Below, one piece after another: positions 36,407-41,046 of a stretch of 64,000 nt of DNA (position 1 is the stretch's first letter; each line of letters starts with the position of its first letter). The stretch lies in assembly GCF_029016485.1 (NCBI RefSeq), contig NZ_CP092106.1, forward strand, positions 2,046,001-2,110,000. The letters are read 5' to 3'. The notes below the pieces were generated by a model. It saw only the letters and a program-made list of their open reading frames with translations. It searched no databases and had not been told where the DNA came from. Position numbers and translations under genes: made by a program. The DNA is from Vibrio sp. JC009. Lineage in GTDB: Bacteria; Pseudomonadota; Gammaproteobacteria; Enterobacterales; Vibrionaceae.

Positions 36407-36627
36407 TTCTAACTCCAATACTAAGAATCCCTGATTTGTTTTTTAGTATGCGCCATGCGTATATAAATCACAATACAACGACTTACCGGGCGCACAAAAA
36501 ATCAAAACTGAGCACTTAGTCAAGTTATGCATAACGCGCTTCGAGTATCAAATATGTTACAATTTTATCAATTTTTTGGGAGTAAATTACTTCCTGTTAC
36601 CTTCCCTTTTTGATATGGAGAGATTTA

Positions 36628-38619
36628 ATGAAAGGCTCAGTTATCCGGCGAATGTACGCTGGTTTTTCATTAATAGTAATTATGTTTGTTGCCACCATTG
36701 CCCTGATGATAAATGGGATGAACAGCATATACGCTAAGTTTGGTGCGGTATCAGAGAGCTCTCTGCCTTTTGTTTCATTGTCTAATAAGACCAGTGTTCA
36801 GCTGTTATCTTCTGATAAGCTCTTCAAAGATTATCTGACTTCCGATGATCAGGAAAGAATGAAACAGATACGTGAAGAGTTTGTAAAATCGAGACAAACC
36901 TTTAACACAACCCTGGCAGAGCTTGAAAAAGCGAGCCAGATCTATGCCGGTGCGCAAAATAAAATGGCCGACCTAAGGCAGCTCGAAGAGAGCTATTTTA
37001 CAGAAGCAGAAGAAGCCATGGGCAATTTCAGCAGTATGTTTGCTGCTGAAGAAAAAGTCTCTCAGTCCACCAGAGCATTTCAGCGCCTAAATGTCGAGCT
37101 TACCGTGGGAATGAAAGAGCGTGTAGCCAAACAAAAAAGCATCTCTGTAAAACTGATGGCTAAAAGCTATTTCTCCAAACTGGAGGTGGCCTCTGACGTT
37201 ACCGTGGATGCGCTTGCCAGCGCAGATACAGAGCTGGTAAAAAAAGCAGTTGCAGTAAACAAAAAGGCGGTCACTCATCTCAATTACGCTTTCAATGGCC
37301 TGGCAACTCAGTCTCCGGAAATCAAAGCTGAATTTTCAGATTCCGTGGAACAATTTACTCAGGACATAGGCAAACCCGGTGGTGTTCTGGACCAGCACTA
37401 CACCTTCCTTGTATCACAACAAAAGCTCTATCAAAATATTGCCAACCTTACCCGCAAGGTTGATAGCGCAATGGAAATGCTGGATAGTTTTAATCAGCTT
37501 GCGACACAGGATCTGAATAAGTCATTAGAAGAAGCCGGGGAAATCTACGACAACGGTTTACGTAATGCGATTATCATAGGTATCGCCGTGGTACTTATCG
37601 CTGTTGCCATCGGATACCATGTTGCACACAGTGTAAGAGAACCACTGACCCGCATCCTTAAGTCCCTTGAGAGCCTGGCTGAAGGTGATATCACTCAACG
37701 CATTGAAATCCGGTATAACAACGAGTTTTCACGGGTAAGTGGCCACATCAATACGCTGGCAGAAAACCTGCACAGCATTCTTCAAAAGCTGAATGCCGCT
37801 TCCGATAACCTGACTTGTGCAGCCAATACCAATCAGGAAACCTCTGAGTCCGCGCAAAGCCAGCTAAGCCATCAGAGAGAACAAACAGCCAATGTAGCTA
37901 CGGCAATGACAGAGATGGAGCATTCCGTTGTAGAAGTGGCTCAGAGCGCGCAGAACTCCTCAGAAAAAGTTCAGCTAGTCGAAAACGCTTCAGAGTCCGG
38001 CCGCCAGATTATGAGTGACAACATCACCACCATTAACCAGTTGGAAGCCCGGTTAAATGAATCTGTGGATGCGGTCTCTGACGTGCAAAAAATGAGTGCT
38101 GAGATCGGTACAATTCTGGATGTGATTCAGAATATTGCCGAGCAGACCAACCTTCTGGCACTGAATGCCGCCATTGAAGCCGCCCGTGCAGGCGAACAAG
38201 GGCGAGGTTTTGCCGTTGTTGCTGATGAAGTACGGGTTCTGGCTCAGCGCACATCAGAATCGACTTCAGAAATTGAAAATATGATCAGTAACCTTCAATC
38301 CAGCTCCCGCTCTGCCGGTGATGTTATTGAAAGCTGCATGCAGGATATGGAACAGTCTGTTTCGCAGGCTTCTCAGGCCAACAGCGCCATGGAAGAGATT
38401 CAGGCTCTGATCCTGGAGATAAGCCAGTTGAGCACCCACATTTCTCAGGCTGCGGCGGAGCAGACTAAAACCACCTCCGACATAGCAAGAAGCCTGGAAG
38501 ACATTAATCATATTGCGGAAGACAGCCATGAAAAGATGTCTGAAATTACAGCGGTAAACAGTGACCTGACAGGCCTGGCGAAGGAGCAGTCTGACTTAGT
38601 TCATCAATTTAAACTGTAA
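36628..38619 (+). CDS. Methyl-accepting chemotaxis protein
   Basis: 663 residues from ATG at 36628 behind GGAGAGATTTA. First membrane helix at about 8-30, a long all-helical periplasmic sensor (about 31-312), second helix about 313-333 ([19 protein letters not shown]), HAMP, and the cytoplasmic signalling hairpin with tip [20 protein letters not shown]. Glutamine/glutamate pairs suit methylation. The helical sensor suggests an HBM or 4HB_MCP type, ligand unknown. A terminator follows. Confidence 0.95.
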
Positions 38620-38636
38620 ATTGACATTACTTTGAT

Positions 38637-38677
38637 AAAAAACAAGGGCAGATTATTACAATTTGGCCTTGTTTTTT
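38637..38677 (+). terminator. Terminator of the chemoreceptor gene
   Basis: AAAAAACAAGG pairs with CCTTGTTTTTT across a 19-base loop, ending in a T-run. Confidence 0.8.
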
Positions 38678-38695: not shown

Positions 38696-38770
38696 CTCTA
38701 ATATGTAGGCCGGCGACACCTTTTTTTACCCATTTTCAGCAGGCCATCACTTCTAATAACGAGGACCAAT

Positions 38771-39931
38771 ATGGCCATTCAGGTTGGTATCATAGATCAA
38801 GACCCAATACGACTTGTCACACCGCTGCTGGATCACCGCGCGATATGCGAGCACATCATCTTTATCGGCGACGAAAGTCAGTTCGGTATGTATGAGCGCC
38901 TTAAGCAGGTGCTTGCCCAGAGAGACATCAAAGCTGAGTTTTTTGAGATCCCTTCCATCGTAGACACCGTCCTTATTCGCGAATCTATCCAGAAGCTGGA
39001 GCAGGATCTACTTCAGCGCGGCGATTCCATCAAGCTGAATGCCAGTTGCGGACTTCGGCACAGGCTGCTTACCGTTTACGAGATGTTCCGCAGAAACAGT
39101 TGGGAAATATTTGTGGTAGAACCTAACAGCGACAAGATCTGCTGGCTCTACCCGGAAAACCTGCCTGATATTCAGGTCGCCGACAAAATTACCATTTCAG
39201 ATTACCTCACCATCTTTGGTGCCAGAGCTGAATTTAATGAACAGGAAATCCCGGAGCAGCTTAACCTGAAGCTCTATAAGCTAGGGCAGAAGTGGGCAGG
39301 CAACGCACTTGAATTAGGTCCGGGCCTTGCCACGCTAAACTATCTGGCCACCACCTGTCGTAAAGAGCAAAAACTGGATGTGGCACTGACAGAAAAGCAA
39401 CAGGGCTACCGTGAGCTGAATATGCTGCTGACAGACCTGGTAGACACTGAACTGGCAGACTATGAAAACGGCATTCTGACCTTTAAAAGCGAAGATGCCC
39501 GACGCTTCTCCAACGGCGAATGGCTGGAAACTCTGGTTCACAGCACAGTAAAACAGATCCAGGATGAGCTGCCGACCATTCAGGACCACTCCCTGAATGT
39601 TCAGGTCTACCGCCAGCTTGGCGAGCGCGAAGTCAGAAACGAGCTGGATGTGGCATCCGTGGTCAATAACAAGCTGCATATCATCGAATGTAAGACCAAA
39701 GGCATGCGCGACGACGGCGATGACACACTATACAAACTGGAATCACTAAGAGACCTGCTGGGCGGTCTTCAGGCAAGAGCTATGCTGGTCAGCTTCCGCC
39801 CTCTTCGCCACAACGATATTACCCGCGCAGAAGATCTGGGCCTGGCGCTTATCGGGCCGGATGAGCTAAAGCAGCTTAAGGAACATTTGCATGCATGGTT
39901 TGATGCGGCTGGGGGGCATGAGGGGTTATAG
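38771..39931 (+). CDS. Stand-alone CARF-PD-(D/E)XK nuclease (DUF1887, VC1899/Card1-like)
   Basis: 386 residues, ATG behind GAGGACCAAT. The N-terminal half (about 1-150) is a CARF-type Rossmann domain with the ligand loop LNASCGLRHRLL near 89-100. A linker domain follows, then a PD-(D/E)XK nuclease at about 245-375: Glu250/Glu253 in NGEWLE, Asp293 in NELD, Glu306-Cys-Lys308 in IIECKTK. This is the fold of V. cholerae VC1899 and of CRISPR-associated Card1/Can2, where cyclic oligoadenylate bound by CARF activates DNA/RNA cleavage. No cas gene or CRISPR array is present in the window, so the activator is unknown. Located after the chemoreceptor, as I recall for VC1898-VC1899. Confidence 0.92.
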   Translation: MAIQVGIIDQDPIRLVTPLLDHRAICEHIIFIGDESQFGMYERLKQVLAQRDIKAEFFEIPSIVDTVLIRESIQKLEQDLLQRGDSIKLNASCGLRHRLLTVYEMFRRNSWEIFVVEPNSDKICWLYPENLPDIQVADKITISDYLTIFGARAEFNEQEIPEQLNLKLYKLGQKWAGNALELGPGLATLNYLATTCRKEQKLDVALTEKQQGYRELNMLLTDLVDTELADYENGILTFKSEDARRFSNGEWLETLVHSTVKQIQDELPTIQDHSLNVQVYRQLGEREVRNELDVASVVNNKLHIIECKTKGMRDDGDDTLYKLESLRDLLGGLQARAMLVSFRPLRHNDITRAEDLGLALIGPDELKQLKEHLHAWFDAAGGHEGL

Positions 39932-40094: not shown

Positions 40095-40853
40095 TTACAA
40101 CATCTTACGAGCAGCCTCAACCACAACCTTAATCGAACGAGCCTCAGTCTCTTTCAGCGTCGAATGATCTGGGATCTCTTTCTGCGTACGGTTGATGATA
40201 ACACCCGCCACACAACCCGCTTTCAGGCCTGAGCTTGCGCACATAGTCAGAAGGGTTGCGGATTCCATTTCGAAGTTCAGCACACCCATGTCCTGCCACT
40301 CTTGCATTGAGCCCTGGAAACGCTTCACAACGCGGCCGGAGAAGGTGTCGTAACGCTCCTGGCCCGGGTAGAAGGTATCACTTGAAGCTGTCACGCCCAT
40401 ATGTACCGTTGCGCCAGTCTCTTCTACTGCTGCTTTCATTGCTGTTGCTACTTCAAAATCTGCAACTGCCGGGAATTCCATTGGAGCGAAGTGAAGGCTT
40501 GCACCGTCCAGACGTACAGAGCCTGTAGAAACAATCATATCGCCTACATTCACATGCGGCTGAATTGCACCTGTAGTACCAACACGCAGGAATGTACGAA
40601 CACCGCACTGCGCCAGCTCTTCTACGGCGATAGACGTTGAAGGGCCACCGATACCGGTTGAACAGATAACTACTGACTTACCATCCAGTTCAGCACGGTA
40701 AACGTTGTATTCACGATGACGTGCAAGCTGAACAGGATTTTCCATCTCGTTTGCGATCTTTGGCACACGATCCGGATCACCTGGGATAATTGCTACAGTT
40801 GCACCATTTAAATCGGCTTCGGTAATACCCAGATGGAAAACTGGTTGAGACAT
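40095..40853 (-). CDS. udp: Uridine phosphorylase
   Basis: 252 residues from MSQPVFHLG at 40853 behind AAGGAG; a longer frame to 40973 is non-coding leader. Phosphate-loop [10 protein letters not shown], ribose/base-binding STGIGGPST and VGTTGAIQ, and the [12 protein letters not shown] segment identify Udp. It splits uridine with phosphate to uracil and ribose-1-phosphate for nucleoside salvage. E. coli udp is under CRP/CytR; I could not find a convincing CRP site here. Confidence 0.96.
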
Positions 40854-41046
40854 ATTTGACTCCTTTTGTTGGCAATGCCAGTAGTGGTTGTGGGATACAG
40901 AGAAACTGTAGCTGAACATATCCGGAATTATAGTGATCGCATTCACAATACATAATGTTACAAAATGACACATTACAGAATTAATCGGTTTGCATCACAC
41001 TTTTAAGTGAATTTAGATTAGTAATTGCGCTTTTGAACAAGCATAG

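What the first reader, a model, noticed from the sequence alone, without database searches (positions are those of the whole stretch)
38771..39931. Stand-alone CARF-PD-(D/E)XK nuclease outside any CRISPR locus
The sequence shows a CARF-type N-terminus and a complete nuclease core (Asp293, Glu306-x-Lys308) of the Card1/Can2 architecture. In type III CRISPR these enzymes are switched on by cyclic oligoadenylates. No cas gene is visible within 25 kb on one side or 38 kb on the other, and the neighbours are a chemoreceptor and udp. Either an unknown cyclic nucleotide source activates it, or it senses viral or cellular nucleotides independently. That makes it a candidate anti-phage or stress nuclease in vibrios.
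Basis: partly seen in the sequence, partly recalled or inferred. Interest (0 to 1): 0.8.

Follow-up and report, generated by a model that had tools for sequence, protein, structure and literature searches.

The report
Core Vibrio CARF nuclease, VC1899 ortholog
This gene encodes a nucleotide-sensor domain joined to a nucleic-acid-cutting domain, a pair best known from CRISPR immunity; in vibrios it is a chromosomal gene kept by nearly every species without the CRISPR enzyme that would normally switch it on, and its sensor pocket has been rebuilt and then frozen, so it may answer to a different, still unknown signal.

Summary
In detail: 38771-39931 (+) encodes a 386-aa CARF plus PD-(D/E)XK protein with D293, E306 and K308 in place. 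The protein is not new. It is the ortholog of V. cholerae VC1899 (PDB 1XMX, about 75% identity over its full length), the founding DUF1887 protein, already published as an orphan that cA4 does not activate and that may be a degenerate enzyme "cast adrift" from CRISPR.

Evidence here speaks against "degenerate". The gene is in 156 of 159 sampled Vibrionaceae genomes; median dN/dS is about 0.02; catalytic residues and pocket residues D9, D11, R14, R96, V115, P118 and Q334 are identical in 114 of 114 distinct orthologs (D34 is not). Relatives with a Can2-type pocket mostly have S, Q, P, K, Y at 9, 11, 14, 96, 115, and 12 of 17 such genomes carry Cas10. The window's genome has no Cas10 by the models used (its six best candidates are GGDEF proteins) and no SMODS CD-NTase; at least 5 of 159 Vibrionaceae have Cas10.

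Best reading: a vertically inherited, working nuclease whose CARF sensor was re-specified away from cA4. Ligand, substrate and biological role are not shown.

The parts
38771..39931 (+). Whole gene: CARF plus PD-(D/E)XK nuclease, 386 aa, VC1899 ortholog
38771..39211 (+). CARF domain, about residues 1-147; ligand loops with D9, D11, R14 (after strand 1), R96 (after strand 4), V115, E117, P118 (after strand 5)
   Evidence: Weak match to PF23400; strands and helices of the model; conservation; residue roles as modelled for VC1899 in PMC7969007 (passages). Domain border is mine.
39212..39475 (+). Middle part, about residues 148-235, mostly helical, with the conserved stretch ELGPGLATLNYLATTCRK
   Evidence: 44% of positions at least 99% conserved; secondary structure
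39476..39928 (+). PD-(D/E)XK nuclease domain, about residues 236-386; E253, E291, D293, E306, K308
   Evidence: PF09002 residues 241-379; 58% of positions at least 99% conserved; dN/dS 0.012
38708..38745 (+). Inverted repeat just before the Shine-Dalgarno: arms 38708-38714 and 38739-38745, loop 24 bases; in the window 6 of 7 pairs form; likely a 5'-UTR hairpin or an operator, role unknown
38637..38677 (+). Terminator-like stem-loop with T-run between the chemoreceptor gene and this gene
   Evidence: read from the sequence; not scored by a terminator program
36610..38619 (+). Upstream neighbour: chemoreceptor (HAMP, MCP signal domain); missing from 5 of 77 Vibrio loci that extend far enough
40095..40973 (-). 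Convergent downstream neighbour: uridine phosphorylase-like (PNP_UDP_1); near the gene in 32 of 80 Vibrio loci and 16 of 20 further loci

Best explanation
The gene is the VC1899 ortholog, a core, vertically inherited gene of the Vibrionaceae. It most likely encodes a working, dimeric, ligand-gated nuclease. Shown: the PD-(D/E)XK domain is intact and strongly constrained; the CARF keeps its fold, but its ligand-loop residues differ as a set from those of Can2-type relatives (S, Q, P, K, Y at 9, 11, 14, 96, 115) and are D, D, R, R, V in every Vibrionaceae ortholog examined. Inferred: the sensor was re-specified, before the family diversified, for a ligand other than cA4 that comes from a chromosomal, Cas10-independent source or arises during infection or nucleic-acid stress; binding brings the two nuclease domains together on DNA or RNA, as in Can2. 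Ligand, substrate and benefit to the cell are unknown.
For: Ortholog of VC1899 by sequence and fold. Present in 144 of 148 genus genomes and 156 of 159 family genomes. Conserved place: upstream block in 77 of 80 Vibrio loci (the other three are cut by contig ends); udp nearby in 16 of 20 further loci, 19 of them from other genera. Vibrionaceae copies form one group with support 100, which also holds one metagenome protein, P0186. D9, D11, R14, R96, V115, P118, Q334, D293, E306, K308 identical in 114 of 114 distinct proteins. Median dN/dS 0.020 over 249 pairs; CARF 0.026, nuclease 0.012. Of 19 positions conserved in Vibrionaceae (99%) and as another residue in 79 Y115-type proteins (80%), 13 lie in the CARF, against 10 of 49 positions conserved as the same residue in both; Fisher p 0.0004, or 0.0008 without position 115. 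Six of nine CARF pocket positions named for VC1899 are invariant, against 40 of 147 CARF positions overall, p 0.013. No Cas10 or SMODS in the window's genome by the models used. Published: VC1899 is not activated by cA4 and lacks the cA4-contact residues (PMC7969007).
Against: No ligand or regulated activity has been shown; published in vitro RNase activity is weak and DNase activity absent, which a weakly active or relic enzyme would also show. The pocket is not frozen throughout: D34 is D in only 70 of 114 and Q10 is Q in 106 of 114, and the CARF is the least conserved of the three parts (27% of positions at least 99% conserved). The outgroup protein L118/P0121 with a D9/E11/H96/I115 pocket lies beside type III-D cas genes, so a D-type pocket may bind a cyclic oligoadenylate. 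At least 5 of 159 Vibrionaceae do have Cas10, and sub-cut-off matches were mostly not followed up. The position statistics ignore shared ancestry.
Confidence: 0.55

Rival explanations
1. Housekeeping nuclease without a ligand: the CARF is now only a dimerisation scaffold, and the enzyme acts in DNA or RNA metabolism under other control (partner protein, expression, substrate structure).
For: Core gene, conserved place, nuclease part more constrained than the CARF; two changes beside the active site found in Vibrionaceae but not in most relatives, R245 and E250; conserved hairpin before the start codon suggests control of expression.
Against: The ligand loops, not the rest of the CARF, hold most of the lineage-specific fixed changes, and residues lining the pocket are invariant, which a mere scaffold would not need.
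Confidence: 0.2
2. Accessory of passing type III CRISPR systems: the protein waits for a cyclic oligoadenylate other than cA4 (cA3, cA5 or cA6) made when the strain or a mobile element brings a Cas10.
For: Five of 159 Vibrionaceae genomes have a confirmed Cas10 and all five also carry the CARF gene. A relative with a D-type pocket sits in a type III-D locus. In the parts of PMC7969007 that I read, cA4 is the only activator named for VC1899.
Against: Most of the 156 carriers have no Cas10 over cut-off; selection this strong and even is hard to explain by a rare partner.
Confidence: 0.15
3. Degenerate relic of a CRISPR effector, as PMC7969007 suggests.
For: cA4-contact residues lost, no cA4 activation, weak activity in vitro (PMC7969007).
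Against: Catalytic and most pocket residues invariant in 114 of 114; dN/dS near 0.02; 156 of 159 genomes. Damaged copies look few: among 144 genus genomes with a match G010 is split between frames and G117 lies in pieces in a poor assembly; a few match ranges hold one stop and I did not examine them one by one.
Confidence: 0.06

Closest known systems
VC1899 of Vibrio cholerae (PDB 1XMX; DUF1887 founding member)
   Same: Ortholog: full-length match E 2e-197, about 75% identity, 1.0 A overlay of the predicted model; same catalytic residues; same pocket residues as named in PMC7969007.
   Different: No functional difference known. The published reading (degenerate) is disputed here.
Can2 (7BDV) and Card1 (6WXW), type III CRISPR nucleases activated by cA4
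   Same: CARF plus PD-(D/E)XK architecture and fold; D, E, K of the active site.
   Different: 22-23% identity to Can2 in the overlay; pocket S/Q/P/K/Y type in relatives against D/D/R/R/V here; gene not in a type III locus; VC1899 not activated by cA4.
Cdn1 (9U49, 8Z4I), DUF1887-family CARF protein
   Same: Same architecture. By the section heading and one passage that I saw it binds three cyclic oligoadenylates and is activated by cA4 and cA6 (PMC12825302), so ligand range varies inside this family.
   Different: Lies in a type III-B cluster (same passage); 16% identity in the overlay.
Neiella-type DUF1887 protein (P0121, L118)
   Same: Lacks Y115 and has D9, as the Vibrionaceae proteins do; 36% identity.
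   Different: E11, S14, H96, I115; lies beside Cas10, Cas5, Cas7 and Cas6 of type III-D.

Membership tests
VC1899 / DUF1887 (PF09002) orthologous group | PF09002 nuclease domain over its cut-off | tested here: met
   213.3 bits against 26.4
VC1899 / DUF1887 (PF09002) orthologous group | Full-length match and same fold as 1XMX | tested here: met
VC1899 / DUF1887 (PF09002) orthologous group | Same place in the chromosome as in relatives of V. cholerae (V. metoecus L075, V. mimicus L081) | tested here: met
   LpoB-like, YcfL-like, COG3014-like, HIT and chemoreceptor upstream in both; V. cholerae itself was not among the loci fetched
Can2/Card1 type III CRISPR effector | CARF plus PD-(D/E)XK architecture with intact active site | tested here: met
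Can2/Card1 type III CRISPR effector | Can2-type cA4 pocket (S9, K96, Y115 in window numbering) | tested here: not met
   D9, R96, V115 in 114 of 114 orthologs; S, K, Y in most Can2-type relatives
Can2/Card1 type III CRISPR effector | Type III locus nearby or Cas10 in the genome | tested here: not met
   (capped list)
Can2/Card1 type III CRISPR effector | Activation by a cyclic oligoadenylate | not testable with these tools
   Published for VC1899 with cA4 only, negative (PMC7969007)
CBASS effector | CD-NTase in the genome | tested here: not met
   No PF18144 (SMODS) match in the window's genome; the same search rings in 3 of 14 control genomes. Other CD-NTase models were not tried.
Mobile defence gene | Patchy presence, close copies on plasmids or phages, variable place | tested here: not met
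   156 of 159 family genomes; one 25% match in 72,556 plasmids, none in 50,697 phages, none in the viral contigs; conserved place
Anti-phage defence protein by function | Protection of cells from phage | not testable with these tools
   No phage data for this protein found in searches

The most novel reading that the evidence does not exclude
The Vibrionaceae have a core-genome, Cas10-independent CARF signal pathway: a chromosomal enzyme or an infection makes a signal unlike cA4 that fits the D9/D11/R14/R96 pocket and switches on a resident DNA or RNA nuclease. CARF signalling would then be a standing cellular system and not only an arm of CRISPR.
Probability: 0.3. Interest if true: 0.8.

Novelty: new variant of a known kind. 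Interest (0 to 1): 0.5.

Why it matters
CARF domains are best known as sensors of type III CRISPR signals, and the one published account of this orphan suggests a degenerate leftover. Its near-universal, syntenic and strongly selected presence in a whole bacterial family, with ligand loops changed as a set and then kept, says that it works. That makes an open question testable: what does a CARF nuclease sense when there is no Cas10? The pocket residues (D9, D11, R14, R96), the nuclease residues (E291, D293, E306, K308) and two lineage-specific residues near the active site (R245, E250) give ready mutants.

Tried and rejected
Cas10 in the window's genome: the palm-domain model PF22335 gave six matches, three over cut-off. 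I followed all six; each carries a GGDEF domain and none matches a PADLOC model at 1e-10. PF22335 alone therefore cannot answer the question, so I used Csm1 and Cmr2 models for the family. Those can miss type III-D Cas10: the candidates in G236 and G454 were below cut-off but are Cas10 by PADLOC. Hence 5 of 159 is a lower bound: 28 of 159 genomes have some Csm1 match and 11 of 159 some Cmr2 match at E 0.001, and of the Vibrionaceae candidates I scanned only L154 and L155 further.

Regulatory motifs: exact patterns for LexA, CRP, PurR, Fur and NrdR (recalled) found nothing in the 200 bases upstream of 131 orthologs. Rfam at E up to 1 gave one match below its cut-off, a miRNA family, taken as chance.

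Partner genes: HIT, udp, zntA and the chemoreceptor were considered as partners. HIT, udp and zntA are on the other strand, a terminator-like hairpin separates the chemoreceptor, 5 of 77 Vibrio loci lack it, and the upstream block is found in only 1 of the 20 loci (L149, the one from the genus itself). I take the order for linkage.

Mobile origin: plasmid, phage and viral-contig searches and an alignment-based viral scan (32 pattern matches, none a relative) gave no close copy.

Functional literature: searches listed no study of VC1899 in cells; one search looked for CARF classification papers. Papers opened: PMC7969007 (passages by term and one whole section), PMC4012209, PMC6981274, PMC3974666, PMC12669027, PMC12825302 (passages by term only).

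Tree: a quick one, 31 of 121 inner branches weak; L120, L128 and L129 may be joined by long branches. I use only its large groups. Dropped before it: L167, L172, L175, L176 and about three quarters of the proteins from P0187 on, to thin them.

Hairpin controls: simple shuffles also reached the score threshold in 77 of 131 cases (126 of 131 observed), so that control is weak; the count of further pair types is not above the shuffles (238 of 500 as high).

Full report
What is there. The ORF at 38771-39931 (+) encodes 386 aa and gives one match in its 5.21-Mb genome. The genus is Vibrio by its nearest named proteins (88% to V. hannami and Vibrio sp. HN007); the species is not identified. The nuclease domain is Card1-like (PF09002, E 1.1e-63), the CARF half scores just below the Pfam Card1 CARF cut-off, and PADLOC's CARF_PDDEXK model covers 378 residues. 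By sequence its nearest solved structure is VC1899 of V. cholerae (1XMX, E 2e-197), then Can2 (4.3e-27) and, weakly, Cdn1 and Card1. The predicted model (mean pLDDT 91.2) overlays 1XMX at 1.0 A with 75% identity and the cA4-bound Can2 7BDV chains at 3.4-4.0 A with 22-23%.

What was known. VC1899 has been purified and tested: no plasmid cleavage, very little RNase activity, no regulation by cA4; the site where cA4 would sit is largely negative and hydrophobic. [quoted passage not shown] passages; section on activity). In the parts that I read, cA4 is the only activator named for VC1899. The earlier Can1 paper had judged that VC1899 could accommodate cA4, with the caveat that this was not demonstrated (PMC6981274, passages). 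[quoted passage not shown] Searches listed no study of it in cells.

Distribution. The gene is in 144 of 148 sampled genomes of the genus. Of the four misses two are genomes of 1.0 and 1.1 Mb, one is 65% complete, one is a 3.1-Mb genome. It is in 156 of 159 sampled family genomes at least 90% complete (12 of 13 genera); the misses are genomes of 2.1, 2.6 and 4.4 Mb. Outside the family it is rarer and distant: in an order sample 35 of 295 genomes match, 25 of them Vibrionaceae and the other ten at most 36% identical; in a class sample 19 of 295, of which only the window's own genome is close. Plasmids: 1 record of 72,556, at 25%; phages: none of 50,697; viral contigs: none.

Place in the genome. 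In 80 named Vibrio loci the upstream block LpoB-like, YcfL-like, COG3014-like and HIT is present in 77 (the second and third names are recalled, not from a call); the other three are cut by contig ends. The chemoreceptor is present in 74 of 80, and 5 of the 77 longer loci lack it. udp follows in 32 of 80 and zntA in 29 of 80. In 20 further loci, 19 from other genera of the family, udp is nearby in 16, but the upstream block only in the one from the genus itself. So the gene is inherited in place, with one flank kept across the genus and the other, less strictly, across the family. A terminator-like hairpin lies between the chemoreceptor and this gene. Closer to the start codon the genus has a conserved inverted repeat, GGCTTGC and GCAAGCC around some 24 bases, just before the Shine-Dalgarno. 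On 38 loci 95% of cells pair, with 3 pairs and 4 cells changed on both sides (16 and 5 of 500 shuffles as high), while the number of further pair types is no higher than in shuffles (238 of 500); sliding the partner by one to three columns drops pairing to at most 43%. In the window 6 of 7 pairs form. Its role is unknown.

Selection. Among 131 orthologs (114 distinct proteins) D9, D11, R14, R96, V115, P118, Q334, D293, E306 and K308 are identical in 114 of 114; L95 in 111, Q10 in 106 and D34 in only 70. Positions at least 99% conserved make up 27% of the CARF, 44% of the middle and 58% of the nuclease part. Pairwise dN/dS (own Nei-Gojobori script, 249 pairs with dS 0.15-1) has a median of 0.020: CARF 0.026, middle 0.015, nuclease 0.012. 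These numbers do not fit a non-functional relic.

Pocket type and Cas10. Distant relatives show two kinds of pocket. In 79 proteins with Y115, position 9 is S in 94%, 11 is Q in 86%, 14 is P in 85% and 96 is K in 87%. Of 17 genomes from the order and class samples whose copy has S9, K96 and Y115, 12 have a Csm1 or Cmr2 over cut-off, in 10 of them within 10 kb on the same contig. Of the other five, three (G281, G541, G648) have only sub-cut-off matches, two of these within about 10 kb of the gene, and two have none. I passed 28 genomes; the remaining 11 are 5 Vibrionaceae with extra copies, 3 with other pocket types outside the family, and 3 with truncated or odd copies; one of these 11, G547, has Cas10 over cut-off. 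Five genomes with weak or partial matches (G164, G386, G424, G737, G746) were not passed. The other kind of pocket lacks Y115; on the tree the Y115 proteins are one side of a branch with support 94, and the Vibrionaceae proteins, with the metagenome protein P0186 among them, form a group with support 100. Nineteen positions are conserved at 99% in Vibrionaceae and at 80% as another residue in the Y115 group; 13 are in the CARF (7, 9, 11, 14, 15, 33, 92, 93, 96, 99, 100, 115, 117), against 10 of 49 positions conserved as the same residue in both groups (Fisher p 0.0004; 0.0008 without position 115, which defines the groups). Shared ancestry makes such p-values optimistic. So the sensor loops differ as a set and were then kept. 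The nuclease core was kept, except for a few positions such as R245 and E250, which stand in the Vibrionaceae where the other groups mostly have F and G.

Cas10 in the host. The window's genome has no Cmr2 match and one sub-cut-off Csm1 match, at the place of one of the GGDEF proteins. Its six Cas10-palm matches are GGDEF proteins, and there is no SMODS match. In the family 4 of 159 genomes pass the Cmr2 cut-off, none the Csm1 cut-off, and one more candidate is a Cas10 by PADLOC; all five carry the CARF gene. The true number may be higher, because type III-D Cas10 can score below those cut-offs and most sub-cut-off matches were not followed up.

Results that cut the other way. The best match outside the family in the order sample, L118 (identical to a Neiella protein, P0121), has a D9/E11/H96/I115 pocket and lies beside Cas10, Cas5, Cas7 and Cas6 of type III-D and a CARF-membrane protein. 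A D-type pocket can therefore live with a Cas10, and the ancestor of this side of the family may have sensed another cyclic oligoadenylate. On the other hand two copies in another genus of the order (G867, G883; pocket G9, D11, R96, I115) lie beside the same housekeeping genes (EPSP synthase and a family 3 glycosyl hydrolase), with no PADLOC match among the six neighbours scanned; L119 lies beside a type IV secretion coupling protein gene and L120 beside ordinary genes, with no cas gene among the few neighbours scanned. Stand-alone life is thus not unique to Vibrionaceae.

Mechanism. By analogy with Can2 (same fold) the protein should be a dimer in which ligand binding at the CARF interface brings the two nuclease domains together. 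Shown here: architecture, intact active site, constraint, re-specified pocket, no Cas10 by the models used. Inferred: that the pocket binds something, that this gates the nuclease, and that the signal comes from a chromosomal or infection-derived source. Not known: substrate and benefit.

Verdict. The published suggestion of degeneracy is hard to keep. I put 0.55 on a working, re-specified, ligand-gated core nuclease and 0.3 on the bold form, a Cas10-independent CARF signal pathway in the Vibrionaceae.

Noticed in passing
window 38708-38745; 38 Vibrio loci: Conserved inverted repeat (7-base arms, loop about 24) directly before the Shine-Dalgarno of this gene, with a few double changes; hairpin or operator of unknown role.
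   Followed up: partly
L125 (G134), L126 (G043), L127 (G521): Second copies at 55-63% identity elsewhere in the genome, with the same D9/D11/R14/R96/V115 pocket; in L125 between a Na/Ca exchanger gene and a DUF898 gene, in L127 near a subtilase and a 2HCT transporter gene.
   Followed up: partly
L128 (G090), L129 (G001): Two genomes of the genus carry a further, distant CARF nuclease (28-30% identity) with a third kind of pocket (T or N at 9, P or M at 96, W115).
   Followed up: no
L154 (G454), L178 (G236): Cas10 proteins that score below the NCBIfam Csm1 and Cmr2 cut-offs but are Cas10 by PADLOC (E 7.5e-93 and 4.2e-68); surveys that rely on those cut-offs undercount type III systems.
   Followed up: partly
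window 36610-38619; L011, L061, L074, L084, L086: The chemoreceptor upstream is missing in 5 of 77 Vibrio loci; in the aligned ones part of the terminator-like sequence still precedes the CARF gene, which looks like a scar of a loss.
   Followed up: no
L214 (G867), L215 (G883): Another genus of the order keeps a related CARF nuclease beside EPSP synthase and family 3 glycosyl hydrolase genes: a second possible stand-alone lineage.
   Followed up: partly
window, one ORF of the 52 scanned: Two Cas3 models match weakly (E 1.1e-9 and 8.5e-9); probably an ordinary helicase, not identified.
   Followed up: no
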